Notes under the pieces: model-generated
Told to the model about the DNA's origin: nothing
Seen by the model: the letters and a program-made list of their open reading frames with translations, nothing else
Database searches by the model: none
Translations under genes and position numbers: made by a program
In this document: positions 322 through 56,430 of the stretch, in pieces
Layout: every line of letters begins with the position of its first letter
How positions within the stretch are numbered: the stretch's first letter is position 1
NCBI RefSeq assembly: GCF_000371785.1
Contig: NZ_AQUI01000002.1
Span: 5,071,352-5,135,351, forward strand
Direction of reading: 5' to 3'
Source: Actinopolyspora halophila DSM 43834
GTDB lineage: Bacteria; Actinomycetota; Actinomycetes; Mycobacteriales; Pseudonocardiaceae
Length of the DNA stretch: 64,000 bases

Positions 322-720
322 AGTGCACGGGTCGGTCTGCTCGGGTGGTTCCGTGGGGAACCTCAGTCGGGGTCTCGCTGCGGGTGTCCCGACATCGGGT
401 AGCGACCTACACAACGTCGGGACCGTCCTCGCGAGACCCGCGACTGAGAACCCCCGGCGGTGCCGACTGCTCAGGCTCGTAAGCGCCTGCGTTGGCGTGG
501 GCCTCTTGGTTGGGAGTGCCTGTCCGGGTGCTCTGCGCACTTCCGGCGAAAGGCCTCGGTCGATGCGAGCGCTTCAGCCTACCCGGAACGAGAAGATCCG
601 GTGCGTGAGTCGGATGCATCGCAAGGCCGGGCCGCTCGCCGCGTAGGTGGCTACTCAAGAGCGGCCCAACACAGCAAGGCGCCGACTCACGTGCCGGCTA
701 ACAAGCCAGCTACGCAAAGC
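322..720 (+). repeat. Structured 3'-end repeat, copy A (full length)
   Basis: Non-coding copy of the dispersed element, beginning 4 nt after the asparaginase stop and in the same sense. The GGAACCTCAGTCGG box starts at 357. A three-tier hairpin spans 362-448: outer arms 362-378 and 431-448, a perfect 8-bp middle stem (386-393 with 416-423, GTCCCGAC/GTCGGGAC), and an inner GTAG-CGAC-CTAC (399-410). Further blocks up to about 710 also recur in the copy at 25.4 kb. It fills the whole 416-bp gap between two convergent genes, and I see no gene in it. Confidence 0.8.
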
Positions 721-734
721 TCCGTTACGAGTTA

Positions 735-1619
735 TCAGTTGTAGCGCTCGTGCGCCGCCAGTTCCGCCCAGAACTCGCGCAGCGCCTCGTAGCGCTCCGC
801 CACCTCGTTGGTGTGCCCGAGTTCCATGGCGTCCACGATCGCGTGCACGTCCTCGGCCGAGGTGTCGGCGCGCAGGTCCTCGTCGCGCATCATGCGCACC
901 AGACCGCCGTAGTCGAGTTCGACCGCCGAGTGCGGGTGGAACCGCTCCAGCCAGCGACCCGTCTCCCGCAGGATCTTCGGCGGGCCCTCGTCGCCCAACG
1001 TGTTCCTGGTGACGGTGTGCGCCCTCGAGACCCTGCGCCTGGCCTCCGCCATCGGCGTGCGCCAGTAGAGCCGCTCGATCCCGCCGTACGAATCGTGGAC
1101 GAGCACGCGCTGTTCCGGATCCACCACGGCGAACCACGGCAGCGGGATCGTCCAGGTGGACGAGATCACGTGCACCGCGCTGTCGGACAGTTCGTTGACC
1201 ACGGCCGAGGCCTTGGACTTGGCGGTGTCCTCGGGCATCGTCAACGCCGCCGTGCGCAACGGCGGATCGGCGGCACCGATGAAGCCGACCAGTGCGGCGG
1301 CCGCGCGCCCCCTGATGTCGAGCGGGCAGACCAGCGGCCCCGGGCCGATGGTGTCGGCGGACTCGGCGGGAACGTCCTCGGGGTCGAGGGCGAGCACCTC
1401 CTCCTGCCCCTGCGGTGTTCCGTCGATCCCTTCACCGGGAAGAAGACGCGGTCGGATGGACAGTTGGCTACGCAGCCACCTGTTCTGCTCGCGAGCACCG
1501 ACCCCGACCGGATCCACAACACCCTGATCCAGCGCTTCGGCGAGTTGTTCCTGTCGGGGCGACTCGAACGATGACAGGGGCTCGTACACCCTCATGTAGG
1601 CGACGAACGGCTCCGGCAC
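735..1619 (-). CDS. Conserved actinobacterial protein of unknown function (DUF8083-like)
   Basis: A 294-residue soluble protein with no signal peptide or membrane segment. It begins VPEPFVAYMRVYEPLSSF, a start I associate from memory with a conserved actinobacterial family annotated DUF8083; that name is uncertain. A middle VCPLDIRGR motif and a WTIPLPWFAVVDPEQR stretch look like conserved core. I chose the GTG at 1619 because the similarity-like N-terminus starts there; an ATG at 1595 is the alternative, and the open frame reaches 1679. It converges on the asparaginase gene. No function is proposed. Confidence 0.6.
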   Translation of the reverse strand: MPEPFVAYMRVYEPLSSFESPRQEQLAEALDQGVVDPVGVGAREQNRWLRSQLSIRPRLLPGEGIDGTPQGQEEVLALDPEDVPAESADTIGPGPLVCPLDIRGRAAAALVGFIGAADPPLRTAALTMPEDTAKSKASAVVNELSDSAVHVISSTWTIPLPWFAVVDPEQRVLVHDSYGGIERLYWRTPMAEARRRVSRAHTVTRNTLGDEGPPKILRETGRWLERFHPHSAVELDYGGLVRMMRDEDLRADTSAEDVHAIVDAMELGHTNEVAERYEALREFWAELAAHERYN

Positions 1620-1865
1620 AGCGTGTATGTTGCCATGTCCGCGAGCTCGTTCCGGCGGCGGCCGCCCCACGCTCCACACCGACCGGTTCCACGCCTGTGT
1701 CCAGTGCGGTTCATATCACTGTGGCGGAGTCGGCTCGCTGGGCGTACCACGTCGCGGAGAACCGCATCGGCACGGTACGGTAGTTACAGGAAAAGGTTGT
1801 TGAGATTCATGCGGGGCCGCCGTTCCCCTGGCCGCCCCGCAAACCCTGCGCGAGGGGGTCGAGCC

Positions 1866-2039
1866 ATGGGGCGCGGCCGTGCCAAGGCCAAGCAGACAAA
1901 AGTGGCCCGCGAGCTGAAGTACAACTCCCCCAGTGTTGACCTCGATGCGTTGGAGCGTGAGCTTTCCGCTGACTACACCCCGGAGTGGTACGAAGAGGAC
2001 GACTACTACTACGACGGGGAAGACGACCACCGCAGGTGA
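1866..2039 (+). CDS. DUF3073 small acidic-tailed protein
   Basis: A 57-residue protein with a basic N-terminus (MGRGRAKAKQTKVARELKY), then a PSVDLDALERELS segment and a very acidic tyrosine-rich tail (EEDDYYYDGEDD). This bipolar layout is typical of DUF3073, a small actinobacterial family commonly found beside purM, as here (purM converges from the other side). The ATG at 1866 follows a GAGGGGG ribosome-binding site; the longer frame from 1623 has no comparable site. The function of the family is not known to me. The stop codon lies inside a 16-bp perfect palindrome. Confidence 0.8.
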   Translation: MGRGRAKAKQTKVARELKYNSPSVDLDALERELSADYTPEWYEEDDYYYDGEDDHRR

Positions 2040-2049
2040 ACGTTCACCT
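2034..2049. promoter_or_regulatory. 16-bp perfect palindrome over a stop codon
   Basis: AGGTGAACGTTCACCT is fully self-complementary with no loop, so it suits a dimeric DNA-binding protein rather than a terminator. It covers the last coding bases and stop (2037-2039) of the DUF3073 gene. No regulator is assigned. Confidence 0.4.
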
Positions 2050-2182
2050 CGCACGAGTCGCGGGAACCGCTCTTGTGGGTGAGCGTACTGCCGAGGTCCG
2101 ATCAGCGGGTGAGCTGACGTCCGGCATCGCTGCCCGGCCGCTGTGACGCGCCGGGGAAACGACCGAGCATTCGGACACCACC

Positions 2183-2221
2183 ACGGGTGGGTGGCGGCTC
2201 CTGTCGAGCGCACCCACCCGT
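2183..2221. terminator. Hairpin between the convergent DUF3073 and purM genes
   Basis: A perfect 11-bp stem, ACGGGTGGGTG (2183-2193) with CACCCACCCGT (2211-2221), and a 17-nt loop. It lies in the 446-bp space between two convergent genes, so it may stop transcription from both sides. There is no T-tract, as is usual in high-G+C actinobacteria. I see no gene in the rest of this space. Confidence 0.5.
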
Positions 2222-2485
2222 CGGTTTCCGAACCGTGCCCGCCAACGGTGCGCGACTCGCGGATGAATCGCACGGCAGCGGGCCCCGTGGCGCAGTGCCT
2301 GCTCCGAGTCGCCTCACCACGCGGTGGGTGCCGACCGACGTGCCGGCACCCCACCGCCTACGCGAAGTTCCGATCGATGCTTCCCGCCGTGCTGTTCTCG
2401 GCGCCCCCCAGCGTCGAGAAATCCGTCCGAGCGGCCTGCGCCGCCGAGCAACCACCTGCGCGGACCGAGCCGAAAAACCTCGGTG

Positions 2486-3610
2486 TCAGAACCTCGGGTG
2501 ATTACCGCGCAGCACCACGCGCTGCTCCCCTTCCAGGTCCGGAACGGTCGACTCCTTGGCCACCTCACCGAGCACCCAGGCGGGTGAGTGCCGCGCGGTG
2601 AGCACGGCCAGCGCCCGGTCCACGTCCTCCGCGGCGACCACCGCGACCATGCCCACACCCATGTTGAAGGTGCGCTCCATCTCGGCGGTGTCGATCCGCC
2701 CGCGCTGGGCGATCAGCCCGAAAACGGGGTCGGGGGTCCAGCTGCCCCTGTCGACCACCGCGCCGAGGCCCTGCGGCAGCACCCGCTCCAGATTGGCCGC
2801 GAGCCCGCCACCGGTGACGTGCGCGAACGCGCGCACCTCGGCTTCGGCCGCCAGCGACAGGCACTCCTTCGCGTAAATGCGGGTCGGTTCGAGCAGCTCC
2901 TCGCCCAGGGTCCGCCCGAACTCCTCGACATGCCCGGACAGCGGCATCATGGCCTGTTCGAGCAGCACCCTCCGCGCCAGCGAGTAACCGTTGGAGTGCA
3001 GCCCCGAGGAGCCCATCCCGATCAGCACGTCCCCGGGACGCACCCGATCCGGCCCGAGCATGTCGTCGGCCTCGACGACCCCCACGCCGGTGGCCGATAT
3101 GTCGTACTCGCCCGGCGACATCATCCCCGGGTGCTCGGCCGTCTCCCCGCCGAGGAGCGCGCAACCGGCCTGCACGCAGCCCTCGGAGACGCCTTTGACC
3201 AGGCTGCCGATCCGGTCCGGGTCCACCGCACCCGTGGCGATGTAGTCCTGGAGGAACATCGGTTCCGCACCGCAGACCACGAGGTCGTCCACCACCATCG
3301 CGACCAGGTCGATGCCCACGGTGTCGTGGACGTCCATGGCCTGGGCCACGGCCAGCTTCGTCCCGACCCCGTCGGTGGACGAGGCGAGCACCGGCTCGCT
3401 CCACCGATCCAACTTGAGCTGGAACAGCCCCGCGAAACCGCCGAGCGAACCGAGCACTTCCGGACGCGTGGCGCGTTGTGCCCACGGGCGCATCCGGTCC
3501 ACGGCCTCATCGCCCGCTTCGATGCTGACTCCGGCGTCGGCATAGGTGGCTGCGGGCCCGTCCGGATCGGCGGTACCGGAATTCGACCCTGTCAGCAGGT
3601 CTTCGGACAC
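2486..3610 (-). CDS. purM: Phosphoribosylformylglycinamidine cyclo-ligase (AIR synthetase)
   Basis: Catalyses the ATP-dependent closure of FGAM to 5-aminoimidazole ribonucleotide, step five of purine biosynthesis, in the cytoplasm. The 374 residues include the family start TYADAGVSIEAGDEAVDRM (residue 22 on), the GVGTKLAVAQAMD nucleotide-binding loop, DLVVCGAEPMFLQDY, and the glycine-rich LLGGETAEHPGMM segment. It is about 20-25 residues longer at the N-terminus than typical bacterial PurM, so an internal start is possible. It lies 175 bp downstream of purF on the same strand, the usual actinobacterial order, and the two are probably co-transcribed. Confidence 0.95.
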   Translation of the reverse strand: MSEDLLTGSNSGTADPDGPAATYADAGVSIEAGDEAVDRMRPWAQRATRPEVLGSLGGFAGLFQLKLDRWSEPVLASSTDGVGTKLAVAQAMDVHDTVGIDLVAMVVDDLVVCGAEPMFLQDYIATGAVDPDRIGSLVKGVSEGCVQAGCALLGGETAEHPGMMSPGEYDISATGVGVVEADDMLGPDRVRPGDVLIGMGSSGLHSNGYSLARRVLLEQAMMPLSGHVEEFGRTLGEELLEPTRIYAKECLSLAAEAEVRAFAHVTGGGLAANLERVLPQGLGAVVDRGSWTPDPVFGLIAQRGRIDTAEMERTFNMGVGMVAVVAAEDVDRALAVLTARHSPAWVLGEVAKESTVPDLEGEQRVVLRGNHPRF

Positions 3611-3785
3611 GTCTTGCTCCAGATCTGGTGCGCGATTTGACGATCGAGTGTGCGCGTGCGTGCGGCTGGCCCCACGCTACGCGTATACGTGGACGATTCG
3701 GGTAACGAGCACGACACCGCCGAGTTGCGGGCCGTCTCGCCGTGAAGCACGGCAACGGGTCGGGACGTTCCGGCGCGCGCCGGTC

Positions 3786-5357
3786 TCACGGCCGGCCCAC
3801 CGCGTCCTCGGCCCCGTAGCCACTGGGAAAAACGGGGTCGGCCGATCCGGAGGATTCCTCGCCCCGCGCACCATCGGAGTCCTCCAACAGATGCTTGCCG
3901 ATCCGGTCCTCCTCCGGAATCGGAATCGGGTACTGCCCGTCGAAGCAGGCCGCGCACAACCGGTTGCGCGGTTGTTCGGAGGCCGCCACCAACCCGTCCA
4001 GGGAGATGTAGCCGAGCGAGTCGGAGCCGATGGAACGACGCACCCCGTCCAGGTCGAGCCCGTTCGCGACGAGCTCGGCGCGGGAGGCGAAGTCGATGCC
4101 GTAGTAGCACGGCCAACGCACCGGCGGCGAGGCGATCCGCACGTGCACTTCGAGAGCTCCGGCCTCGCGCAGCATCCGGACCAGGGCACGCTGGGTGTTG
4201 CCCCGCACGATGGAGTCGTCGACGACCACCAGCCGCTTGCCCCGGATCACCTCGCGCAGCGGGTTGAGCTTGAGTCGGATGCCGAGCTGGCGAATGGTCT
4301 GCGACGGTTCGATGAAAGTGCGGCCGACGTAGGCGTTCTTGACCAGACCGTTGCCGTACGGGATGCCGGACTCCTCGGCGTAGCCCACGGCCGCGGGGGT
4401 TCCGGATTCGGGGACCGGCATCACCAGGTCCGCGTCCACCGGGTTCTCCCGAGCCAGCTTGCGACCGATGTCCACCCTCGTGCTGTGCACCGAGCGCCCA
4501 GCGATCGTGGTGTCGGGGCGGGCCAGGTAGACGTACTCGAACACGCAGCCCTTCGGCTCGGGCGCGGCGAAGCGCTGGGAACGCAGCCCCTCGGAGTCGA
4601 TCGCGAGCAGCTCTCCCGGCTCGACCTCCCGCACGAAGGACGCCCCGACTATGTCCAGGCCCGCCGTCTCGCTGGCCACCACCCAGCCGCGTTCCAGCCT
4701 GCCGAGCACCAGCGGTCGCACGCCGTGCCCGTCCCTGGCCGCGTAGAGCGTCGACTCGTCGGAGAAGACCATGCTGAACGCACCACGCACGGTCGGCAGC
4801 AGCTCCATCGCCGCCTGCTCGACCCCCTTGTCGGCCGCGTTCGCGGCCAGCAGCCCGCACACCAGGTCGGAGTCGGTCGTGGCGCGTTGACAGGCCGTGG
4901 CGGAAGAGGCGTTGGGGGTGGAGGCGTCGGCTCCCTCGGCCACCGCGCGCTCGAACAGCTCCGCGGTGTTCACGAGATTTCCGTTGTGCCCGAGCGCGAG
5001 CCCACTGCCGGCCACGGTGGTCCGGAAGCTCGGTTGCGCGTTCTCCCAGGTCCCGCCGCCCGTGGTGGAGTAGCGGGCGTGGCCGACGGCTACGTGTCCG
5101 CGCAGCGAGGCGAGCACCTGCTCGTCGAACACCTGGCTCACCAGGCCGAGGTCCTTGTAGACCAGCATCTGGGAGCCGTCTCCGACGGAGATCCCCGCGG
5201 CTTCCTGACCTCGGTGTTGCAGCGCGAAAAGTCCGTAGAAGGCCAGTTTGGAGACTTCCTCGCCGGGGGCCCACACGCCGAAGACGCCACATTCCTCACG
5301 TGGGACGTCCTGCTCGGTCGACTCGGCTCTTCCCGGATATGGCAGGTCGGTGACCAC
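3786..5357 (-). CDS. purF: Amidophosphoribosyltransferase
   Basis: First committed enzyme of purine synthesis: transfers the glutamine amide to PRPP to give phosphoribosylamine. The 523-residue protein has a 22-residue propeptide followed by Cys23 (EECGVFGVW), which should become the N-terminal nucleophile of the glutaminase domain after processing. The PRPP-binding motif VVVDDSIVRGNT sits in the C-terminal phosphoribosyltransferase domain. The GTG start at 5357 is supported by an AGGGAG site just upstream, and a TATACT -10-like hexamer lies 39 bp before it. Downstream is purM; upstream, 100 bp away, is the sterol-carrier-like gene that commonly accompanies purF in actinobacteria. Confidence 0.95.
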   Translation of the reverse strand: MVTDLPYPGRAESTEQDVPREECGVFGVWAPGEEVSKLAFYGLFALQHRGQEAAGISVGDGSQMLVYKDLGLVSQVFDEQVLASLRGHVAVGHARYSTTGGGTWENAQPSFRTTVAGSGLALGHNGNLVNTAELFERAVAEGADASTPNASSATACQRATTDSDLVCGLLAANAADKGVEQAAMELLPTVRGAFSMVFSDESTLYAARDGHGVRPLVLGRLERGWVVASETAGLDIVGASFVREVEPGELLAIDSEGLRSQRFAAPEPKGCVFEYVYLARPDTTIAGRSVHSTRVDIGRKLARENPVDADLVMPVPESGTPAAVGYAEESGIPYGNGLVKNAYVGRTFIEPSQTIRQLGIRLKLNPLREVIRGKRLVVVDDSIVRGNTQRALVRMLREAGALEVHVRIASPPVRWPCYYGIDFASRAELVANGLDLDGVRRSIGSDSLGYISLDGLVAASEQPRNRLCAACFDGQYPIPIPEEDRIGKHLLEDSDGARGEESSGSADPVFPSGYGAEDAVGRP

Positions 5358-5395
5358 CGAAAACTCCCTGCTTAACGGAGTCGGAGTTACACCTC

Positions 5396-5401
5396 AGTAT
5401 A
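5396..5401 (-). promoter_or_regulatory. Candidate -10 element for purF
   Basis: TATACT on the minus strand, about 39 bp upstream of the purF start in the gap after the upstream gene. It is a good sigma-70-type -10 in otherwise G+C-rich DNA. I found no convincing -35 at the right distance. Confidence 0.35.
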
Positions 5402-5457
5402 AACTGCGTGTCATCCTCCGGTATTCACCTCCCGAGCGTGTGCCCGGTCACTTCTGG

Positions 5458-5856
5458 TCAGGCCTCGTCACCGGCGGAGTCGAAGCGCAGCAGCGGAAGC
5501 CAGTGCGCCAGGTCGGCTCGGGCCCCCGAAGCCGAAACGAGCCCGTCGGCCACCGCGTCCTGCCAGGAAAATCTCCCCGTGACCAGCGACAACCAGGTGT
5601 GCGGGTCGGTTTCGACGACGTTCGGAGGAGTCCCTCTGGTGTGCTCGGGTCCCGGCACGCACTGCACCGCACCGAACGGAGGCACCCGCACCTCGACACT
5701 CCGTCCGGGAGCGGCTCTCTCGAGGGCGCGCAGGGTCAACCGAACGGCCCCGGCCAACTCGCTGCGCTCCGGCCGGGCCGCGTGCCCGCTCAGCCAGCCC
5801 AGCGTTCCGGCCACTGACTCGCGGAGTTCCACCGGATCCACCGAACCTCGAGCCAT
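5458..5856 (-). CDS. Sterol carrier (SCP2-like) family protein
   Basis: A 132-residue soluble protein resembling the small actinobacterial sterol-carrier-like proteins found next to purF. Visible core segments are [23 protein letters not shown] near residues 18-40, the [16 protein letters not shown] strand region, and a C-terminal [20 protein letters not shown] block that resembles the lipid-binding SCP2 fold. The link to purine metabolism is positional only, and no ligand can be named. The start at 5856 is the first ATG of the open frame. It lies 100 bp upstream of purF on the same strand and is followed upstream by repeat copy D. Confidence 0.7.
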
Positions 5857-5883
5857 GTCCCGAAGTCTAGTAGGAGTCGGCGG

Positions 5884-5975
5884 CTCGGTTCGCGCAGCGG
5901 TACGCCCGACGGTGCCGACTGCTCAGGCTCGAAGCGCCCGCGGCGAAGCGAGTCCTCGGTCGGAAGTTCCCGACG
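5884..5975 (+). repeat. Structured repeat, copy D (partial)
   Basis: Shares GGTTCGCGCAGCGGT (5890s) with copy F and CGGTGCCGACTGCTCAGGCTCG (about 5910-5935) with copy A, in the plus orientation. The central hairpin is missing. It lies between two minus-strand genes, so this copy breaks the rule of following a stop codon in sense orientation. Confidence 0.55.
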
Positions 5976-6034
5976 GAAGTCCGGCGGCCCGGCCTGCGCG
6001 GCGGCGCCGGTGGGAAGGGGATTCGCGCCGGTGC

Positions 6035-6838: not shown

Positions 6839-7091
6839 GGCCCGGTCTCGGGTTTCGGGTGGTCACCCGGCCCCGACCGGCAACTTATCCGAACCGGACA
6901 CGTGCAGGAACCCACTTTCGGAGGAGGCGATCCAACCGTACGACTTAGTTCCCGCGGTGGGATTCGCCTCGGCCCGCGCTCGACCGCCGGAAGCCGGTGA
7001 TCCCGGGTGCGAAGTGCCGCCGGAGGGGCTCGGCCCGTCTCGACGACGAGACCGGCCACACCGACGACAGCGCCCACACGGCAAATACGGA

Positions 7092-7526
7092 TCAGGGGGA
7101 CGCGACCAAGCGGCGCAACCGCGAGCTGGCAGCTCGCACGTAGCTCACCACGGCCTCGACGGAGCCCGCTGTGCTGCCGACCGCGGGTACCGGACCACGC
7201 GGCCGTGCCCCGTCCTCCATGCCGTAGTGCAGGTAGAGCTCCCTCTCCTGCTCCGCTTCGAGGTCACCCTCCGGAAGCGGGACGCACGGCGCGTTCCGCA
7301 CGGACTCCCTGGCGACGGCGACGGTCAACGTGTCACCGTCGAACGCCGCTCCCTCCAGGGGGACGAGACTCTCGTTGGTGCCGAACAACCCCGTCTGCAC
7401 CGTCGCCCACACGGGCTGCTCGGTGTCGGCGTCCACGAGGATCCGACCGACGACTCCGAGACGATGACCTCTCGGGTCGAACGTGTCACACCCGGCCAGT
7501 CGCAACGCCTCCCGTTGTCCGATCAT
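7092..7526 (-). CDS. PRC-barrel domain protein
   Basis: A 144-residue protein starting MIGQREALRLAGCDTFDPRG. Residues about 10-80 read as a PRC-barrel: strand-rich, with GHRLGVVGRILVDADTEQPVWATVQTGLFGTNESLVPLEGA. Such domains occur in RimM and the photosynthetic reaction centre H subunit, and as stand-alone stress proteins in actinobacteria. The C-terminal half is acidic, then basic (SSRLRRLVASP). I chose the ATG at 7526 over the one at 7544 because the former begins the conserved-looking block. It is transcribed divergently from the type VII-associated gene across 250 bp. Confidence 0.7.
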   Translation of the reverse strand: MIGQREALRLAGCDTFDPRGHRLGVVGRILVDADTEQPVWATVQTGLFGTNESLVPLEGAAFDGDTLTVAVARESVRNAPCVPLPEGDLEAEQERELYLHYGMEDGARPRGPVPAVGSTAGSVEAVVSYVRAASSRLRRLVASP

Positions 7527-21310: not shown

Positions 21311-21362
21311 TCGACTCCGTGCGGGGCCCGTCCGAGCGCCTTCCGGACGGATCCGCGTCGCC

Positions 21363-21618
21363 GCAGGCGCTCCGAGCCCAGGCAGTCGGCACCGCCGCAA
21401 AAACACCTACGCCAACCGACTCCCCGAAAATCTCCACTCCAACGCAGGCGCTCTGAGCCTGGGCAACCCGACCGACCGCGGGTTCTCAGTCGAGTGCCCG
21501 GCGAGGACGGCCCCGACGTTATGTAGGCCGCTACCCGATGTCGGGGCACCCGCAGCCGGGCGCCGACTGAGGTTCCGCCAAGTGCCCCACTAGGCCACCG
21601 GCACCCCCGGCCCTGGAG
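21363..21618 (-). repeat. Structured 3'-end repeat, copy B (full hairpin, internally duplicated)
   Basis: Reads on the minus strand from just after the TIGR03086 gene stop. The GGAACCTCAGTCGG box starts 46 nt past the stop (21563-21576 on the plus strand). Hairpin arms are 21485-21502 and 21555-21571, the middle stem is 21510-21517 with 21540-21547, and the inner GTAG-GCCG-CTAC is 21523-21534. The flanking module GCAGGCGCTC-GAGCC appears twice, at 21363-21384 and 21444-21465. It fills the 311-bp gap between convergent genes, with no gene inside. Confidence 0.8.
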
Positions 21619-25212: not shown

Positions 25213-25390
25213 CGTCAGAGCCAGCGCGGACAGCCCCCGCCCCCGGGGCGTGGAGGTCGTCGAACCGTCCCGTGACGGCTTTCTCCTCGTGGTCTCGATA
25301 CCGCGCTACCTTCGAACCTGGTCGTCACCGCCCCGAGAGGCGCCCCCTCGGAGCTTTCTTTCTTGAGAATCCACAGCAGGACTCCGCATG

Positions 25391-25708
25391 GCTGCTCGGT
25401 TAGCCGTCACGCGAGTCGGCGCCTTGCCAGCGTTGGTCCGCTGGTGAGTAGCGGCCATTCACCGGAAAGTACGCAGAGTTCCCCTCCAGCGCACCAACGC
25501 CCCGGACAGGAACTCCCGATCAAGAGCCCCACTCCAACGCAAGCGCTTACGAGCCCAAGTCGCCGGCACTGCCGCGGGTTCTCAGTCGAGCGCCCGGCGA
25601 GGACGGCCCCGACGTTGTGTAGGTGGCTACCCGATGTCGGGGCACCCGCAGCCGGGCGCCGACTGAGATTCCGCCACGCAACCACCCAAGCAAAAGGATC
25701 CGCCGACC
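25391..25708 (-). repeat. Structured 3'-end repeat, copy C (full length)
   Basis: Reads on the minus strand, starting right after the nfo stop; the box GGAATCTCAGTCGG begins 40 nt past it (25659-25672 on the plus strand). Outer arms are 25581-25598 and 25651-25667, the middle stem is 25606-25613 with 25636-25643, and the inner GTAG-GTGG-CTAC is 25619-25630. Distal blocks at 25391-25453 also match copy A. It occupies most of the 499 bp between two tandem genes, where I see no coding sequence. Confidence 0.8.
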
Positions 25709-38639: not shown

Positions 38640-38735
38640 TCGACGGATCGGTTCGCGCAGCGGTGCTGGTGGCGAAACCTCTCGCGGGCTCTCGCCGCGG
38701 GGCGGCCCGACATCGGGCAGCGGCGCCCGAAGAGG
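38640..38735 (+). repeat. Structured 3'-end repeat, copy F (partial)
   Basis: Begins 6 nt after the SDR stop in the sense direction; the box-like GAAACCTCTCGCGG lies about 39 nt past the stop. GGTTCGCGCAGCGGT matches copy D, and CCCGACATCGGGCAGCGGC matches the middle stem of copy A. The 3' arms of the hairpin are missing. It fills the 110 bp between convergent genes. Confidence 0.65.
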
Positions 38736-43419: not shown

Positions 43420-43500
43420 GCTGTGGCTGCTCCCGCAGCGAGCCCCGACCGGGATCGCCCCCACTCACACGCCGAGCAAACCAACCCGCCGCCCCTCGAC
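43420..43500 (-). repeat. Structured repeat, copy I (partial)
   Basis: On the minus strand, the segment matches copy A through GGTTGGTTTGCTCGG, a GTGGGG-like stretch and GTCGGGGCTCGCTGCGGG. The remaining hairpin is lost. It lies about 165 bp beyond the trmB stop in the sense direction of trmB, further than most copies. Confidence 0.5.
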
Positions 43501-45056: not shown

Positions 45057-45387
45057 AGTTCACCTTCCTCCGCGAGCACCGCGAGAGGGTCGGATAAACA
45101 CTCGCGGCAAGCACCCCCAGGGGATGCGCCCCGGAAACGGCGCTGGTTCGGGATCGCATCACTCACTTTACGAATTACCACGAACACGAGAGGTGAACGC
45201 AACCTCTCGAACCGTGGCCCCACCCTCACGCATGGGGGCCATCGATAGTAGCGCAGAACCAAGCGAACCGTAATCGAAGCAGCGCGCACAGTGCTCGCCG
45301 AGATCTTCCGTCGCGGCTGTTCGAGCGGCCGCGCGGCTTGAGCGAGCACTCGCTCGGCCGAGCCGGTGCGTGGGCAAGCGGCGAAGT

Positions 45388-45545
45388 CGCTTTACGCCGC
45401 CTGCGCAACCGACACCGCCGGGGGTTCAGGCGGGTCTCGCGAGGACAGCCCGCACGTGGCTGTAGCTTCCTGCTCGATGTGGGTGGATCCCTCAGCGAGC
45501 CCTCCACGGGGATTCCCACCAACACCGCCAAGCAAACCGACCCGC
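45388..45545 (-). repeat. Structured repeat, copy E (degenerate)
   Basis: Reading on the minus strand: GCGGGTCGGTTTGCTTGG, a GGGAATCCC box, then GCGAGACCCGCC-like and GGCGGTGTCGGTTGCGCAGG blocks in the same order as copy A. Plus-strand landmarks are GGCGGGTCTCGCGAGGACAG at about 45428-45448 and CGACACCGCCGGGGGTTC at 45409-45426. The hairpin arms no longer pair well. Confidence 0.6.
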
Positions 45546-45680
45546 GAATCCCTCAGGGGATCGGTCGGCGGAACCTCCTGCGGGCTCGTGAGTGGGCACC
45601 CCGACCTCGGGGTGACGACCTACGGGTCGCGCCGGACAACGGACTCCGGTGCGTAGCTGTCGACGACGGATCCCCGGAAC
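45546..45680 (+). repeat. Structured repeat, copy J (degenerate, inverted relative to copy E)
   Basis: Plus-strand order: GGTCGGCGGAACCTCCTGCGGG (about 45562-45583), then a GTGGGCACCCCGACCTCGGGG middle-stem remnant and GACGACCTACG at the inner-loop position, as in copy A. The 3' half has diverged. It sits head to head with copy E. Confidence 0.5.
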
Positions 45681-49743: not shown

Positions 49744-49916
49744 GCCGGTCAGCCTATAGCAGGACCTCGGCGTCCCGGTTCGCTCAGGCGGCGCGGGTGG
49801 CGCGCCCGCTCACGATCCCGCTGAAGCGGGAGCGGTGGTTCCGGCACTGCCCGCGCCGGAGAACACCGGCGAGCCACCGCGGTCGAACGGGCGCACGCTC
49901 TCGCCCGGGGAACCGG

Positions 49917-51185
49917 CTACGGGGTCCCGGCCGCGGCTCGCTCACCCTCCAGCGGGAGGTCGGCGCGCACGCTCCAACCACCGTCGGCGTTCGGTCCCGC
50001 TTCGAGGCTCCCGCCGTAGACGGTGGCCCGTTCCCGCATCCCGATGACGCCGTTGCCCCCGGAGGACTGCGGAGCCAGCACACCGCGCGCCCCGCTGTCG
50101 GAGACCTCGATGCGCATGCTGCTGCCCACCTCCTCCAGCGACACCGTCGCCGTCGCGTTCCACCCCGCGTGCTTGAGCACGTTGGTCAACGACTCCTGGA
50201 CGATGCGGTAGACGGCCAGTCCCGGCCCGGTCGGAACCCGGTCCAGCTCCCCGTCGATCCGCAGGGTCACCGGCAGTCCCAACGCACGAACTCGTTCCAC
50301 GAGGTCGCGAACACCGTTCGCACCGGGTTGGGGAGAGCGGTCCCCGGTGTCGTCCCGCTCCTCCGGGTGGCGCAGCACGTGGAGCAGGCTCCGCAACTCG
50401 CTCAGGGCGTCCCTGCCGGTGTTTCCTATGGTCGTCAGCGCCTGCTCCGCCAGCTCCGGTTTCCGCCGCACGGCGTAGGTGGCGCCGTCGGCGTGGGTGA
50501 CCATCACGCTCACCGAGTGCGCGAGCACGTCGTGCAACTCCCTGGCTATGCGGTTGCGCTCCTCGGCCACCGCGATCCTGGCCTGCTGGTCCTGTTCGAA
50601 CTCCAGGCTGCGCAGCCTGCTCTCCGTCGCTTCCTGATACGCCCTGCGCGCGCCGACGTACTCGCCGAGCACCCAGCAGAACCCGAGCTCGAGCCCCAGC
50701 TGGATCGCGAAGAGCACGAGGGGCATCCCCCCGTGGAGCTCGTCGAGCAGCACCAGTGGAACCAACCACGTCACGGCGATGCCGCAGGCATAGCACGCGG
50801 CCGCGCTCCTGCCCACGTAGGCGACCAGGGTGTACAGCATGATCAGCACCACGAAGGCGGCCGGGCGGGTGACCATCTCCTGCTGCGTGACCAGCTGCAC
50901 CAGCAGACCGAGCAGCATCAGGTAGGCGATCGGCACCGGCAGGGTCCTGCGCAGCACCAGCGGGAGGACCAGCAGCACCCCGGCGAACACGTCCCAGAAC
51001 GGAGCGGGGGATCGGGCGACGGCGTCGCCGAGCGTGCCGCGCGTGATCTCGGCCAGCAGCACCAACAGCATCAGCATGCTGTCCCCCGCGCTCGGGTGGG
51101 CGCGCATCCACAGAATCAGTCTCCGCACGTTCGCCCACGGTAACCCGTTGCGCTGTCCGGACGCGTCGTTGCGTGGTCGAGACAC
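49917..51185 (-). CDS. Membrane histidine kinase (HisKA_3 type)
   Basis: A 422-residue kinase with about six membrane segments (residues about 32-165, from DSMLMLLVLLAEITRGTLGD to VLFAIQLGLELGFCWVLGEY). The dimerisation motif IARELHDVLAHSVSVMVTHA has phosphorylated His218. The ATPase domain shows IVQESLTNVLKHAGWNATAT and SGGNGVIGMRERATVYGGSL. This is the usual DesK/LiaS-like actinobacterial layout. The start is the first ATG, but a later one (MRAHPSAGDSM, residue 27) is possible. It pairs with the response regulator downstream. Confidence 0.92.
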   Translation of the reverse strand: MSRPRNDASGQRNGLPWANVRRLILWMRAHPSAGDSMLMLLVLLAEITRGTLGDAVARSPAPFWDVFAGVLLVLPLVLRRTLPVPIAYLMLLGLLVQLVTQQEMVTRPAAFVVLIMLYTLVAYVGRSAAACYACGIAVTWLVPLVLLDELHGGMPLVLFAIQLGLELGFCWVLGEYVGARRAYQEATESRLRSLEFEQDQQARIAVAEERNRIARELHDVLAHSVSVMVTHADGATYAVRRKPELAEQALTTIGNTGRDALSELRSLLHVLRHPEERDDTGDRSPQPGANGVRDLVERVRALGLPVTLRIDGELDRVPTGPGLAVYRIVQESLTNVLKHAGWNATATVSLEEVGSSMRIEVSDSGARGVLAPQSSGGNGVIGMRERATVYGGSLEAGPNADGGWSVRADLPLEGERAAAGTP

Positions 51186-51529
51186 CTGTCATACCGGAGC
51201 GGGGCGAACCGCACGTTTTCCCGGGGCCGATGTCCCGCTCGGCTTCCGCTCGTCCGAGCGGGTTCGAGCAGCGCCACCTCTCACTCGGGTCAGTGATATT
51301 TCGCTTCCGGTCGGCGACGTACGGCCGTTCGGCCCTCCAGCGCTGCTCCTGGCGGAGCATTCTCGCCCGACGATGTTGACGCGAAGTGTGTTCTACGACA
51401 CCAATGTTCGTTGATGGTGACTGACGTCCGGTTGTGTTTTTCTCTGTTGCCGAATGTGCTCCCCACTTCCCACGGCGGCGAAAACCTCACACCGGGCGGG
51501 AGCCACCTGATGTCGTGTGAGGAGGATCG
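51186..51529. other. 344-bp non-coding region upstream of the GH2 gene
   Basis: No coding sequence is evident. The last 170 bp are less G+C-rich than the surroundings and include a TTGACG hexamer at 51376-51381, but no well-spaced -10. They probably hold the divergent promoters of the kinase and glycosidase genes. Confidence 0.4.
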
Positions 51530-53386
51530 ATGAAATCACGACTGCCCGCAGGCCGGGGGCTTCTCGGAGCCCTCGGCGGACTCGCACTCGCGAGCACCCT
51601 CGTCCTGGGTGCCGTACCCGCAGGCGCAGCCGCTCCGCCGAAGCAGTGGACCCCGGAGGAGCCGCCACTGACCACACCGTGGACCGAACAGGTGGGACCG
51701 GACAACGCCCTGCCGGAGTACCCGCGCCCCCAGATGAAGCGGAAGCGCTGGAAGAACCTCAACGGCGAGTGGCGGTACGCGGGCGGCGCCACCCCACCCG
51801 ACAGGAACGGTCACCTCGACGAGCGAGTACTCGTCCCCTACCCCGTCGAGTCCGGGCTGTCCGGCATCCAGCGCCACGACGACCACATGCTCTACCAGCG
51901 CGAGTTCAAGGTCCCCCACTCGTGGCGTGGTGGCGAGCTGCTGATGCACTTCGGAGCGGTCGACCAGCAGGCCGCGGTCTGGGTGAACGGCAGGCGGGTC
52001 GGTTCGCACCAGGGCGGGTTCACCTCGTTCACGCTCGACGTGAGCGACGCGCTGCGCCCCGGAAAGCGGCAGCGGGTGACCGTGGCCGCCACCGACACCA
52101 ACGAGGACAGCTCCTACCCGGTCGGCAAGCAGAGCAACCAACCCGGCGGGATCTTCTACACCGGATCCTCGGGGATCTGGCAGACCGTCTGGCTCGAACC
52201 GGTCTCGGACACCCACCTGGGCGAGCTGAACATCACCCCGCGGCTCGACTCGCGGACCTTCCGGCTCGAACCGGAGATACGCGGCTCCGCAGCCGCCCGC
52301 GTCGAGACCGTGGTCTCCCACGAGAACGGCGAGACCGTCTCGCGAACCAGCACGGAGGCGGGAGCGACAGTGAAGGCCCCGGTGCCGGAGCCCAGGCTGT
52401 GGAGCCCCGACGACCCCTACCTCTACGACCTGACAGTGCGCCTGCTGGACGCCTCCGGACGTGAGTTGGACCGGGTCGACAGCTACGCGGGCATGCGCTC
52501 GATCGGCCTGACCACCGACTCGCAGGGTCGACAGCGGATGGCGCTCAACGGCGAGATCCTGTTCCAGCAGGGAATGCTCGACCAGGGGTTCTGGCCGGAC
52601 GGGCTGCACACTCCCCCCACCGACGAGGCCATGCGCCACGACATCACCCAGGCCAAGCGGATGGGCTTCAACATGCTGCGCAAGCACATCAAGGTCGCCC
52701 CGAAGCGCTGGTACTACTGGGCCGACCGGATGGGGATGCTGGTCTGGCAGGACATGCCGTCCCTCTCCGCGAACGTGGGCGGCACCAACGGACCCCCTGA
52801 CGAACAGTCCCGGGCCAGCTTCGAAGCCGAGACCGAAGCGGTCGTCGACCAGCTCGACAGCGTGACCTCGCTGGTGACCTGGGTGCCGTTCAACGAGGGC
52901 TGGGGCGAGTTCGACACCGCCCGCATCACGCGCGAGATCCAGCGGCGGGATCCCGACAGGCTGGTCGACGCCTCCAGCGGGGTCAACTGCTGCAACTCGC
53001 TGCCCGACACCGGGGCGGGCGACATCTACGACGACCACACCTACGTCGGACCGGGAACCCCGGCGGCCACGGCCGAGCGCGCCGCCGTGGACGGCGAGTA
53101 CGGCGGCCTCGGCCTCGTCGAGCAGGGCCACCTCTGGCCCGGCCAACCACACGCCTACGAGATGACCGACAGCCGCACCGAGCTCACCGAGCGCTACGGC
53201 CGGCTCTCCGAGGACCTGATCGGAGCCGTCGAGCGGAACGGGATCTCGGCGGCGGTCTACACCCAGGTCTCGGACGTGGAGAACGAGGTCAACGGCCTGA
53301 TGACCTACGACAGGAAGATCACCAAACCCGACGTGGACTCCATCCGCGAGACCAACCGGGCGATCATCGACGCCGGAACGCCCTGA
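51530..53386 (+). CDS. Secreted glycoside hydrolase family 2 protein
   Basis: A 618-residue exported GH2 enzyme. The signal peptide is MKSRLPAGRGLLGALGGLAL followed by ASTLVLGAVPAGAAA. A jelly-roll sugar-binding domain (KRKRWKNLNGEWRYAGG, then HMLYQREFKVPHSW and GQ-like WVNGRRVGSHQGG) and an immunoglobulin-like domain follow. The TIM barrel has acid/base Glu456 in WVPFNEGWGEFDT and probable nucleophile Glu523 in VDGEYGGLG. Activity could be beta-galactosidase, beta-mannosidase or similar. An AGGAGG site precedes the ATG. The following gene is a secreted aldose epimerase, suggesting extracellular sugar processing. Confidence 0.9.
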   Translation: MKSRLPAGRGLLGALGGLALASTLVLGAVPAGAAAPPKQWTPEEPPLTTPWTEQVGPDNALPEYPRPQMKRKRWKNLNGEWRYAGGATPPDRNGHLDERVLVPYPVESGLSGIQRHDDHMLYQREFKVPHSWRGGELLMHFGAVDQQAAVWVNGRRVGSHQGGFTSFTLDVSDALRPGKRQRVTVAATDTNEDSSYPVGKQSNQPGGIFYTGSSGIWQTVWLEPVSDTHLGELNITPRLDSRTFRLEPEIRGSAAARVETVVSHENGETVSRTSTEAGATVKAPVPEPRLWSPDDPYLYDLTVRLLDASGRELDRVDSYAGMRSIGLTTDSQGRQRMALNGEILFQQGMLDQGFWPDGLHTPPTDEAMRHDITQAKRMGFNMLRKHIKVAPKRWYYWADRMGMLVWQDMPSLSANVGGTNGPPDEQSRASFEAETEAVVDQLDSVTSLVTWVPFNEGWGEFDTARITREIQRRDPDRLVDASSGVNCCNSLPDTGAGDIYDDHTYVGPGTPAATAERAAVDGEYGGLGLVEQGHLWPGQPHAYEMTDSRTELTERYGRLSEDLIGAVERNGISAAVYTQVSDVENEVNGLMTYDRKITKPDVDSIRETNRAIIDAGTP

Positions 53387-53387
53387 T

Positions 53388-53413
53388 CCACCCGCGATCC
53401 GGGGACCGGGTGG
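53388..53413 (+). terminator. Weak hairpin after the GH2 gene
   Basis: CCACCCG (53388-53394) with CGGGTGG (53407-53413), a 7-bp stem with a 12-nt loop starting 2 nt past the stop. It may be a partial terminator. Confidence 0.35.
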
Positions 53414-53554
53414 GCGGTCACGGCGCTGCTCACCCGGCCCCGCGAGTCCGGCGATGCCGAGACCTCTCTCCGCCCGGCGGGCACCGCGGAGCGGGCGGAC
53501 GGCACCGGACCACGCCGCTCCACGACACGAACGGTTCGACCGGAAAGGACGTTC

Positions 53555-54625
53555 ATGAACGATTCCGACACCGCAGGACGCGGCTGGAGCAGGCGCAGCG
53601 CGCTGACCACCCTCACCGCGACCACGGCGGCGACGGCGCTCGGCGCCGGGTCCGCCACCGCGCAGTCGGCGCCCGGACACCGCGGCCGGGGGCACGACCG
53701 GCACGAGCAGACCGCCAACGGCAGGCTCTACGAGATCCGTTCGGGCCACAACCGCGCCGTCGTCGCGGGGGTGGCCGCGACCCTGCTGTCCTGGCGGGTG
53801 GACGGCGAGGAGATGCTGCTGACCCACGACCCGAGCGACCCCGGTGAGGGCTACCAGGGAAAAACCATCCTCCCCTGGCCCAACCGGATCGACCGGGGTT
53901 CCTACGAGTTCGGCGGTGAGCGGCTCCAGGTTCCGATCAACGAACCGTCCAGGCAGGCGGCGCTGCACGGTCTGATGAACTTCGTCGAGTGGGAGCCGGT
54001 GCGCCACAGGTCCGACAGCGTGCGACTGCGGTACCTGCTGCACCCGCAGTACGGCTACCCGTTCTCCGTGGAGTTCTCGATCGAGTACGCAGTGGACCAC
54101 CACGGCGTGCGGTGCACGCTCACCGCCGAGAACAGGGGCAGCACCGCGGCCCCCGTCGGATGGGCCAACCACACCTACCTGGCGGCCGGGCCCGGCGGCA
54201 CCGACCGGATGAGACTGCGGCTGCCCGCCGAGACGTACTACCGCACCAACGACCGGCTCATCCCGACGGGAACCGCCGCGGTCTCCGGTACGGAATACGA
54301 CTTCCGCGAAGAACGCGAGATCGGCACGACCGAGATGGACACCGCGTTCAAGGACCTCGCCCGCGACGGCGACGGGCACGCCGTCGTGCGGTTCGGGCTC
54401 GAGGACGGCCGGGAGGTGTCGCTCTGGATGGACGAGGCCTACGGCTACCTGCAGGTCTACACCGACGACGCCCCGAGCGAGGACCGCGAGCGACCCGCCA
54501 GGTCGGGGATCACCGTCGAGCCGAACACCTGCCCGCCGAACGCGTTCGTCACCGGTGAGGCCGTACGTGTGCTGCGACCGGGCGAGCGGCACACCGCGAC
54601 GTGGGGGTTGCGCTCGGCGGACTGA
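53555..54625 (+). CDS. Secreted aldose 1-epimerase (mutarotase)
   Basis: A 356-residue mutarotase with a Tat-type signal, GWSRRSALTTLTATTAATAL, ending near ATAQSA. It interconverts alpha and beta anomers of aldoses. Catalytic residues are recognisable: His138 (ALHGLMNFVEW), His206 (GWANHTYLAAG) and Glu322 (ITVEPNTCPPNAF). ILPWPNRIDRGSYEFGGERL is the substrate-binding loop. Export together with the upstream GH2 glycosidase (168 bp away) suggests both act on sugars outside the cell; epimerisation there would favour uptake of one anomer. The copy G repeat starts just after the stop. Confidence 0.9.
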   Translation: MNDSDTAGRGWSRRSALTTLTATTAATALGAGSATAQSAPGHRGRGHDRHEQTANGRLYEIRSGHNRAVVAGVAATLLSWRVDGEEMLLTHDPSDPGEGYQGKTILPWPNRIDRGSYEFGGERLQVPINEPSRQAALHGLMNFVEWEPVRHRSDSVRLRYLLHPQYGYPFSVEFSIEYAVDHHGVRCTLTAENRGSTAAPVGWANHTYLAAGPGGTDRMRLRLPAETYYRTNDRLIPTGTAAVSGTEYDFREEREIGTTEMDTAFKDLARDGDGHAVVRFGLEDGREVSLWMDEAYGYLQVYTDDAPSEDRERPARSGITVEPNTCPPNAFVTGEAVRVLRPGERHTATWGLRSAD

Positions 54626-54635
54626 GCGACGAGCC

Positions 54636-54720
54636 GAGCGCACTGAGCGAGTGCACGGGTCGGCCTGCTTGGGTCGTTCCGCGGGGGAACCTCGGTCGGC
54701 GGTTCGAGTGGACCGGGTGG
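54636..54720 (+). repeat. Structured 3'-end repeat, copy G (5' part only)
   Basis: Sense-oriented after the epimerase stop. GAGTGCACGGGTCGG (also after the asparaginase stop in copy A), then GCTTGGGTCGTTCCGCGG and the box GGAACCTCGGTCGG starting 61 nt past the stop. The hairpin part is absent. Confidence 0.65.
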
Positions 54721-54817
54721 TAAAAAGCGGGCGCGCCGCTTCCGTCCGCCCGCGCACACCGGCGGGACGACGGGAGCGGCTCGAGGAGACGCGAGAGATC
54801 CTTGAAGGTAGCTGGGG

Positions 54818-56350
54818 TTGACCACTCATCAGCGCGTGCGCGGCCCGCTCTCCGCCGCCGTGGCGCGGCTGTGCGAGGAAACGCGCCCACGTGTCGGGCA
54901 ACGGGCCGCCACCGGGCTGGGCGAGGTGCTCGACCGGCTGAGCGCGCCGCTGCAACTCGCCGTCGTGGGGCGAATCAAGTCCGGCAAGTCCACACTGGTC
55001 AATGCTCTGATCGGACGTCGGGTGGCCCCCACCGACGTGGGCGAGTGCACGAAGGTGGTCACCCGGTTCCGGTACGGGACGGTCGACCGGCTCGAGGTCG
55101 TCCTGCTCGACGGGAACAAGTACTCGTTGCCGTTCACCGCCGGAGGGGCCATCCCCACCGACCTGGGGGCGCCTCCGGAACGGGTGTCACACGTCGAGGC
55201 GTACCTGACCAACGCCGTGCTGCGCGATCTGACCGTGATCGACACCCCCGGTCTGGGGTCCGTGGACGACGACTCGGTCGCCCGGACCGAAGCCGTGCTC
55301 GGCACCGGGGACCAGGACGGTGCTGACTCCGAACGGCTCGATCCCGTTTCGCACGAAGCAGTAGCGGGCGCCGAGGCAGTGCTCTACGTGATCACCCAGT
55401 CGGTGCGGGCCGACGACCGACAGGCCCTGTCCGCGTTCAACGCCGCCACGGGCAACCGCCCCTCCGGACCGGTCAACGCGATCGGTGTGCTGAACAAGGC
55501 GGACACGGTCGACCCGGACTCGGTGAGCGGCGGCGCGGGCGGGCTGTGGCCCGCGGCACGGGTGCTGGCGACGGACCAGGAACAGCGGCTCAAACCACGT
55601 GTCGCCGACGTGCTGCCGCTGATCGGGCTTCTCGCCGAAACGTCCGAGTCCGGCGAGTTCACCGCCTCCGACGCCGCAGCACTGCACCGGTTGGCCGCGC
55701 TGGACGAGACGACGCGACAGACCATGCTGATCTCGGCCGACCTCTTCACCGAGTGGGAGTGCGAGGTTCCCACCGACGCGCGGGCACGGCTGCTGGAGCT
55801 GCTGGATCTGCACGGCGTCCGGTGCGCCCTGGAGGAGATCGACGCCGATCCGCACATCACCGCGGGGCGGCTGCGGAACAAGCTGCACGAGAACTCAGGT
55901 CTGTCCGCACTGCTGACTCGACTCAACGCGGTGTTCCGCGGCCGTGCGGACGGCATCAAGGCCGCCGCGGGGCTCGCCTCGGTCGCCGCCGTGGCGCAGT
56001 CCTGCACGGACCCGAGCGAGCGCGAGCGGCTGCACGCCGCGATGGAGGGCTTGCTGACCCAGCCGCAGGCACACCAGCTCAGGCTGCTCGAGGCGCTGAC
56101 GATGATCTCGGCCGGAACGGTCACACTTCCCTCCGACCTGCTCGACGAGGTTCTGCGGCTCGGCGGTTCCGAGGACTTCTCCGAGCGGCTGGGGCTGCCG
56201 GGAGCCCCCGTCGAGCGGCTGACCGAGTTCGCGTTGGAACGGGCGAAGTGGTGGCGCTCGTTCGCGTCGCTCGGTGCGACGCCGGCCCAGAGCCGGGTGG
56301 CGCACGTGGTGCATCGCGCCTACTTCCTGATATGGCGCCAGCTGCGGTAG
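54818..56350 (+). CDS. Dynamin-like GTPase A
   Basis: A 510-residue large GTPase. G1 is GRIKSGKST (residues 51-59), the G2 Thr lies in VGECTKVVTRFRYG, G3 is DTPGLGS (142-148), and G4 is NKAD (226-229). The rest is helical, with an FTEWECEVPTDARARLLELL segment and no clear membrane span. Bacterial dynamins bind or remodel membranes during division, sporulation or envelope stress; actinobacterial pairs (DynA/DynB in Streptomyces, IniA/IniC in mycobacteria) work as partners. The start is a TTG at 54818. Downstream come a GrpE-like gene and a second dynamin. Confidence 0.85.
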   Translation: MTTHQRVRGPLSAAVARLCEETRPRVGQRAATGLGEVLDRLSAPLQLAVVGRIKSGKSTLVNALIGRRVAPTDVGECTKVVTRFRYGTVDRLEVVLLDGNKYSLPFTAGGAIPTDLGAPPERVSHVEAYLTNAVLRDLTVIDTPGLGSVDDDSVARTEAVLGTGDQDGADSERLDPVSHEAVAGAEAVLYVITQSVRADDRQALSAFNAATGNRPSGPVNAIGVLNKADTVDPDSVSGGAGGLWPAARVLATDQEQRLKPRVADVLPLIGLLAETSESGEFTASDAAALHRLAALDETTRQTMLISADLFTEWECEVPTDARARLLELLDLHGVRCALEEIDADPHITAGRLRNKLHENSGLSALLTRLNAVFRGRADGIKAAAGLASVAAVAQSCTDPSERERLHAAMEGLLTQPQAHQLRLLEALTMISAGTVTLPSDLLDEVLRLGGSEDFSERLGLPGAPVERLTEFALERAKWWRSFASLGATPAQSRVAHVVHRAYFLIWRQLR

Positions 56351-56351
56351 A

Positions 56352-56430
56352 ACTCCGTCGGCTCGGTCCGCGCGGGGTTGTTCGGCGGAACCTCGGGCAG
56401 CGGTGCGCGCCGCTCGGGGTGGGTGAGGAG
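56352..56430 (+). repeat. Structured 3'-end repeat, copy H (5' part)
   Basis: Starts 2 nt after the dynamin A stop in sense orientation: GTCGGCTCGGTCCGCG, then the box GGAACCTCGGGCAGCGG beginning 37 nt past the stop. The stem region is deleted. It separates dynamin A from the GrpE-like gene. Confidence 0.6.

What the first reader, a model, noticed from the sequence alone, without database searches (positions are those of the whole stretch)
322..56430. Dispersed non-coding repeat placed a fixed distance after stop codons
About ten copies of one non-coding element occur here (A 322-720, D 5884-5975, B 21363-21618, C 25391-25708, F 38640-38735, I 43420-43500, E 45388-45545, J 45546-45680, G 54636-54720, H 56352-56430). 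Six (A, B, C, F, G, H) begin just after a stop codon, in the sense direction of that gene. The box GGAACCT(C/A)-like sequence starts 39, 46, 40, 39, 61 and 37 nt past the stop. The downstream genes are unrelated (asparaginase, DinB-like, nfo, SDR, epimerase, dynamin). A random mobile repeat would not keep sense orientation and near-constant spacing, so a role in 3'-end formation, RNA processing or stability is plausible. Insertion targeting by a mobile element is the main alternative.
Basis: seen in the sequence. Interest (0 to 1): 0.85.

Follow-up and report, generated by a model that had tools for sequence, protein, structure and literature searches.

The report
Hairpin repeats parked after stop codons
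A salt-loving soil bacterium and its sister species carry many copies of a folded DNA repeat that usually sits just behind the end of a gene, facing the same way; it behaves like an unusually large cousin of the known bacterial REP repeats, and how it gets to that exact spot is not known.

Summary
The window's genome groups with Actinopolyspora. Its repeat is a ~150-200-nt unit built on a ~100-nt hairpin, in two diverged types (L, R), about 250-315 copies in this genome, denser towards the origin. Unit 5' ends lie within about 25 nt of a sense stop codon in 43 of 55 strong units (0.1 expected at random) and in 94 of 133 units from other species. Copy A is a ~400-bp doublet, L and R pointing inward; nine such doublets align, four with the same centre. 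At site C the element lies about 5 nt behind the nfo stop, in a spacer whose remaining length equals that of four unit-free species. At site A the doublet is inverted in two close relatives. Hairpins are missing, exchanged, or extra at the same stops in sister species. The hairpin covaries, but in well-paired columns G-U mismatches are no commoner than A-C, so the pairing looks kept as DNA rather than as sense RNA; this is not clear-cut for R. Reverse transcriptase absent in 10 of 11 genomes; Y1 transposases do not track it; no Rfam match. Similar placement of REPs is in print. Best reading: a new, large REP/REPIN-like DNA repeat; RNA role unproven.

The parts
325..526 (+). Copy A, L-type unit, 6 nt behind the asparaginase stop (ends 318)
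355..457 (+). hairpin core of the L unit of A
532..731 (-). Copy A, R-type unit, 3 nt behind the stop (735) of the opposing gene; with the L unit it makes the ~400-bp doublet that lies inverted in G150 and G188
596..699 (-). hairpin core of the R unit of A
21425..21606 (-). Copy B, L-type unit behind the MDMPI_N (DinB-like) gene
21346..21398 (-). extra tandem copy of the 3' module behind B
25503..25706 (-). Copy C, L-type unit, 5 nt behind the stop (25712) of the AP endonuclease-type gene (nfo)
25373..25456 (+). inverted R-type remnant, second half of the doublet at C
38640..38723 (+). Copy F, shortened L-type remnant behind the SDR stop; R-type in G150 and G188
45378..45548 (-). Copy E, L-type unit; no called stop close by
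45552..45623 (+). Copy J, weak L-type fragment
5905..5974 (+). Copy D, 3' module only (model 133-204)
43420..43500 (-). Copy I, leader fragment
54636..54720 (+). Copy G, leader and start of hairpin, behind the aldose epimerase stop (54625)
56352..56430 (+). Copy H, marginal leader remnant behind the dynamin-like gene stop (56350)

Best explanation
It is a non-autonomous extragenic palindromic DNA repeat family, found so far in Actinopolyspora and one other genus of its family, and it works like REP/BIME/REPIN elements on a larger scale. Its building block is a ~100-nt imperfect palindrome with conserved internal loops and a GUAG/CUAC tip, preceded by a ~40-nt leader that abuts a gene end. Seen in sequence: placement behind stops, inward-facing L/R doublets of which some share a centre, presence behind a stop in a spacer whose rest has the length found in unit-free relatives, a doublet lying inverted between species, hairpin cores present in one species and missing in another, exchange of a hairpin core, extra units next to stops in one lineage. 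Inferred: ectopic recombination between copies, and slippage at palindromes, homogenises, swaps and inverts them; an unidentified activity seeded new sites; harm to promoters and coding sequence removed most copies that are not in the stop-proximal spacer. A mild effect on transcript ends is possible but not needed.
For: Copy number: L core pattern 211 places, 19 for the reversed control; R pattern 66, control 2; covariance model 142 matches among 150 candidates scored. Range: 10 of 10 sampled genomes of the genus and 1 of 190 others of the family sample; no match in viral contigs, plasmids or phages. Structure: 91.9% of cells paired (36-51% when slid) and 108 cells with two-sided changes against 39 in shuffles; ssDNA folds at z -3.4 to -7.6 for four cores. 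Doublet as a copied unit: nine L/R doublets align, four with the same centre; +- pairs 11 and -+ pair 1 of 92 clusters. Insertion: site C, spacer left after taking the element out is 168 nt (own), 168 (G150), 164 (G188), against 164-168 nt in four unit-free species, all between tblastn ends. Inversion: 345 of 435 columns match reversed, 233 of 440 forward; G188 has the same R-L order as G150; unit types swapped at 3 of 11 comparable sites. Missing cores: L069 sites 2200 and 8317. Core exchange and lineage gains. DNA rather than sense RNA: in well-paired columns G-U 58, A-C 101 (L) and 21, 21 (R); tRNAs 23, 0.
Against: Units are far larger than REPs and carry no GTAG/CGTC head. No partner enzyme was found: Y1 transposases are absent from G150, which has 90 L pattern places. 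No target duplication could be defined. The sense bias of singletons is not accounted for: inverted halves are seen behind 1 of 41 own and 7 of 106 other singletons (0 of 300 controls). Over all modelled pairs G-U against A-C is 283:321 for L and 100:22 for R, so for R a sense-RNA constraint is not excluded; the tRNA finder itself favours paired stems, so the control is not neutral. Two-sided changes between orthologous copies exceed chance (22 against 4.7) and broken pairs fall short of it (86 against 122), and the core is kept better (median 0.93) than the leader (0.85) and the spacer behind it (0.84; 0.92 further on), as a functional hairpin would be. In one search two of five covariation measures do not stand out (pairs with two-sided change 13 against 10.6; further pair types 28 against 28.0).
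Confidence: 0.56

Rival explanations
1. A structured 3'-UTR RNA element: each unit belongs to the gene in front of it, folds in the transcript, and ends or protects the mRNA; sense orientation and spacing follow from function.
For: Placement anchored at the 5' end while the 3' end is free (median 127 nt); enriched between convergent genes (27 of 88 convergent against 31 of 293 tandem and 5 of 133 divergent spacers >=150 nt); covariation and core conservation above flanks; G-U excess over all R pairs, 100:22.
Against: No G-U excess in well-paired columns or over all L pairs (283:321); intrinsic-terminator matches at chance level at A, B and C; copies reduced to leaders, or hairpin missing in a sister species; a spacer of the old length with another hairpin still follows the element at C.
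Confidence: 0.23
2. Stop-codon-adjacent insertion made at the RNA or transcription level (for example reverse transcription of transcripts carrying the unit), which would give sense orientation automatically.
For: Single units are mostly sense at the stop (29 of 41); in A. alba R units appear 0-5 nt behind stops, in sense, in front of an older L unit.
Against: No RVT_1 domain in 10 of 11 genomes, the window's own included; two of the four alba gains share their 3' junction into L, which fits homologous recombination.
Confidence: 0.06
3. A chromosome-organising DNA site (gyrase, nucleoid protein or replication related), selected at gene ends in the origin-proximal part.
For: 119 units per Mb in the sampled arms against 25 per Mb elsewhere; dnaA at 165 kb; long palindrome.
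Against: Pattern places differ from 1 to 97 between species of the genus; both strands are used about equally (99 and 112).
Confidence: 0.1

Closest known systems
REP / BIME elements (GTAG and CGTC superfamilies, PMC3733652)
   Different: Unit 150-200 nt with a ~100-nt hairpin instead of 20-40 bp; GUAG lies in the hairpin tip, not at the head; two diverged unit types
REPINs and their RAYT transposases (PMC3116915, PMC2817692; passages seen)
   Same: Inverted doublets, some plainly copied as a whole; no transposase inside
   Different: Doublet ~400 bp made of two diverged unit types; no unit core listed within 1.4 kb of the seven own Y1 places; Y1 absent in a unit-rich species
REPs close to stop codons that lower translation (reported in PMC12306157, passages seen)
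   Same: Hairpin repeat behind a stop codon
   Different: The effect is reported only below 16 nt from the stop; here the hairpin starts about 39 nt behind it
MITEs / small mobile sequences (PMC2229807, start of abstract in a listing only)
   Same: Short, non-autonomous, inverted halves
   Different: No target duplication and no parent element found

Membership tests
REP (repetitive extragenic palindrome) | 20-40 bp palindrome with GTAG or CGTC head | tested here: not met
   ~104-nt core, 150-200-nt unit; GTAG in the apical hairpin
REP (repetitive extragenic palindrome) | high copy number, extragenic | tested here: met
REP (repetitive extragenic palindrome) | close to the 3' end of ORFs, convergent and unidirectional spacers preferred | tested here: met
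REPIN | inverted doublet as replicating unit | tested here: inconclusive
   nine doublets align, four with the same centre; but only 11 of 92 own clusters are +- pairs and most singletons show no inverted half
REPIN | RAYT transposase gene flanked by the repeat and present where the repeat is | tested here: not met
   Y1_Tnp absent in G150, G038 and G013; no core listed within 1.4 kb of the seven own Y1 places; flanks of Y1 genes in other genomes not looked at
Intrinsic terminator | G+C-rich stem followed by a T run | tested here: not met
   1 found inside A against 0.4 in shuffles; none inside B or C; only these three copies scanned
Known structured RNA family (Rfam 15) | match above gathering score | tested here: not met
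   0 in the window and in 8 loci with units
Structured RNA of the sense strand | G-U favoured over A-C in pairs | tested here: inconclusive
   well-paired columns L 58:101, R 21:21; all pairs L 283:321, R 100:22; tRNAs 23:0
Retroelement / group II intron derivative | reverse transcriptase in the genome | tested here: not met
   RVT_1 in 1 of 11 genomes only, not the own one
MITE of an insertion sequence | target site duplication and a parent element with the same ends | tested here: inconclusive
   7-nt direct repeat beside one hairpin core could be a deletion scar; parent not sought systematically
Integron attC | R/L boxes and an integron integrase | not tested
   considered only; convergent genes argue against it (recalled features)

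The most novel reading that the evidence does not exclude
An unknown process, needing neither a Y1 transposase nor a reverse transcriptase, places a folded DNA cassette directly behind stop codons in the sense direction, can add new units at that same spot in front of older ones, exchanges only the hairpin core, and flips whole doublets between the two neighbouring genes.
Probability: 0.2. Interest if true: 0.78.

Novelty: new variant of a known kind. Interest (0 to 1): 0.5.

Why it matters
Why REP-like repeats gather right behind stop codons is open as far as I know (recalled). This genus offers long, alignable units, sister species with copies extra, missing, swapped and inverted at the same stops, and mostly no reverse transcriptase, so insertion bias, selection and recombination could be told apart. 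It also shows that covariation alone can suggest an RNA where the pairing may be kept as DNA.

Tried and rejected
Rejected: a coding fragment or element known from phages, plasmids or viral contigs (units are intergenic; no match, where the doublet A or the core pattern was the query). Rejected by eye: a shared target word; the nucleotides between stop and unit differ from site to site. Rejected as sole cause of the orientation: doublet geometry, since inverted halves are not found behind most singletons. Rejected: the single match in an Ectothiorhodospiraceae MAG (L204), which gave no unit hit with the two profiles. Led nowhere: Rfam at E<=1 gave only a microRNA family far below its cut-off; local 50-nt hairpin energies did not separate unit-bearing from other 3' ends. 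Cases against the rule: units whose 5' end lies 6-29 nt from the start of a divergent gene (10 of the 26 anti-start units); of six units looked at there (L124, L136, L177, L195, L220, L221) I did not settle whether a missed sense frame ends in front of them (L195 has an open frame that does). At the nfo locus of G038, G177 and G165 a unit lies beside or over the nfo start. Limits: the gene caller is my own codon-pair model; it misses small genes and places starts roughly.

Dropped rows: units below the score limits or without a 5' end (82 of 126 kept at >=40 bits, 59 at >=100); exact duplicates and units <60 bits; one search used 32 orthologous pairs chosen by hand from overlaps, one search used 27 of these; one search left out columns less than 60% Watson-Crick (5 of 39 L pairs, 3 of 36 R pairs; restored); one shared site (5841) with non-overlapping parts was left out of the 11. 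The nine doublets were picked from the 30 loci. After the recount I lowered the best explanation from 0.60 to 0.56 and raised the RNA rival from 0.20 to 0.23.
Full report
What was checked. Nine of the ten are clearly related to units elsewhere in the genome and one (H) is marginal. The window is C2:5071352-5135351 of an unnamed 5.35-Mb genome.

Anatomy. A unit has a leader of about 40 nt, a core of about 104 nt that folds into one long hairpin, and a 3' module that differs between clades and can occur alone or in tandem. The core comes in two diverged types: L begins with GGAACC, R with GGCACGTGAG or close to it. Both have paired outer, middle and inner arms, conserved internal loops and a GTAG..CTAC tip. 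By eye the arms occur as a few discrete variants in several combinations. On 36 L cores the structure has 91.9% of cells paired, against 36-51% when the partner is slid by 1 to 3 columns, and 108 cells with two-sided changes against 39 in shuffles; two other measures, pairs with a two-sided change (13 against 10.6) and further pair types (28 against 28.0), do not stand out. Copy A is not one element but an L unit and an R unit pointing at each other. Nine such doublets, picked from the 30 loci, align along most of their length; four have the same centre.

Copy number and range. The L core pattern hits 211 places (19 for the reversed control), R 66 places (control 2); the covariance model gave 142 matches among the 150 candidates it scored. 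The stretches hold 119 units per Mb in the two arms on either side of contig position 1 (dnaA at 165 kb) and 25 per Mb elsewhere, about 315 by extrapolation. In 200 genomes drawn from the family the pattern is found in 10 of 10 of the genus and 1 of 190 others, with 1 to 97 places per genus member. The one other genome (G013) carries a convergent doublet whose two units both lie behind sense stops, one of them a low-scoring gene call. There is no match in viral contigs, plasmids and phages; those collections may leave out the window's own genome.

The positional rule. Of 59 units with >=100 bits and a 5' end, 46 have a sense stop as 5' neighbour, 11 a divergent start and 2 none; 44 of the 46 lie -1 to 18 nt from the stop. 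Placing the units at random in their own spacers with random strand gives 0.1 of 55 against 43; for other species 0.7 of 133 against 94. Singletons obey it too: 29 sense stop, 5 divergent start, 6 other, 1 without neighbour, of 41, while their 3' ends lie at a median of 127 nt from the next gene. So the 5' end is anchored and the 3' end is free. Some exceptions may be real: 10 of 26 anti-start units of other species lie 6 to 29 nt from the start codon of a divergent gene, with little more than room for a ribosome site, though a missed sense frame was not excluded. The rule may be that the 5' end abuts a gene end, mostly a stop.

How the sites differ. Own, G150 and G188 (A. biskrensis) share many sites. 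Of 11 comparable sites three have the other unit type (A, 38634 and L066:344). At A the doublet is reversed in G150 (345 of 435 columns match reversed, 233 of 440 forward), and G188 has the same order as G150; by eye the breakpoints are about ten nucleotides or less from the two stops. At C the element starts about 5 nt behind the nfo stop; the spacer without it measures 168 nt (own), 168 (G150) and 164 (G188), against 164-168 nt in four unit-free species. This speaks for insertion rather than replacement. The spacer itself is too diverged to align; by eye it holds a hairpin in either state, but not the same one. At L069:2200 own carries a hairpin core that G150 lacks between nearly identical flanks with a 7-nt direct repeat (which state is older is open), and at L069:8317 the G150 sequence looks like a loss at the hairpin base. 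In A. alba an R unit, at one site only a fragment, stands between the stop and an L unit at four sites; at three of them two or more other species lack it, at the fourth only one species could be compared. Two of these share the junction into L, which fits recombination between copies. In A. righensis one core differs as a block from its orthologues while its flanks stayed nearly identical (site 4).

DNA or RNA. Between 32 orthologous unit pairs 22 base pairs changed on both sides (null 4.7) and 86 broke (null 122); 30 changed on one side and still pair. The core (median identity 0.93) is better kept than the leader (0.85) and the following spacer (0.84), about as well as upstream coding DNA (0.93). 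These would fit a functional hairpin. But in 203 L cores G-U is not commoner than A-C in columns that are at least 60% Watson-Crick (58 and 101; one class-specific column gives 39 of the A-C), and in 41 R cores it is 21 and 21, while 30 tRNAs from the DNA held here give 23 and 0. Counting every modelled pair, L gives 283 and 321 but R 100 and 22, most of the R excess from three columns that are G-U in nearly all or half of the sequences. The R structure came from a program that allows G-U and not A-C, and the tRNA finder favours paired stems, so neither is a neutral test. For L the pairing is better explained at the DNA level, by a protein that reads the palindrome, by correction between arms, or by copying of intact variants; for R it is open.

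Agents. A reverse transcriptase domain is found in 1 of 11 genomes, G150, not in the own. Y1 transposases occur in 8 of 11 but not in G150, rich in units. No Rfam family and no excess of intrinsic terminators at A, B and C.

Comparison with what is known. The survey PMC3733652 (section 15 read, other passages seen) states that in two species most convergent REPs lie <20 bp from both flanking ORF ends, that unidirectional ones lie close to the upstream ORF, and that REP ends often supply stop codons. Inverted REP doublets as the copied unit are the REPIN idea (PMC3116915, passages). RAYT genes flanked by REPs are described in PMC2817692 (passages). REPs within 15 nt of a stop are reported to affect translation (PMC12306157, passages); here the hairpin begins near 39 nt. 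The behaviour is therefore REP/REPIN-like, but membership fails on size, head motif and RAYT association. I found no description of this repeat in the listings searched (with Actinopolyspora, REP and repeat terms; the library holds open-licence papers only).

Verdict. A real, strikingly placed repeat family; most likely a large REP/REPIN-like DNA element of Actinopolyspora. What remains strange is the sense orientation of single units and the repeated presence of extra units at the same spot behind a stop.

Noticed in passing
L118-L237 (120 loci of other species); L247-L255 (G038, G177, G165): A short palindrome, CGATTTCGCGAGAAATCG and variants, often follows the units or sits alone about 21 nt behind a stop (nfo in G038): 62 exact matches to two spellings in 120 loci; the inner part of the same motif has none in the own sample with up to one mismatch. 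Possibly a native terminator family of that clade.
   Followed up: partly
G000:C2, sampled arms 0-0.94 and 4.24-5.26 Mb: Units are about five times denser in the origin-proximal part of the chromosome than in the rest (dnaA at 165 kb).
   Followed up: partly
window 314-358 and 54642-54686: Copies A and G share a block (ACTGAGNGAGTGCACGGGTCGG) that contains the asparaginase stop codon in A, so the element end may supply the stop there, as reported for REPs.
   Followed up: no
L136, L177, L195, L220, L221: A minority of units lie with the 5' end a few to 30 nt from a divergent gene's start.
   Followed up: partly
G150:C1:1621462-1622088: The only reverse transcriptase domain found in the 11 genomes.
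   Followed up: no
G000:C2:2798646 and 3412107: Two Y1 transposase places with equal scores and open frames of 192 aa, in the unit-poor part of the chromosome.
   Followed up: no
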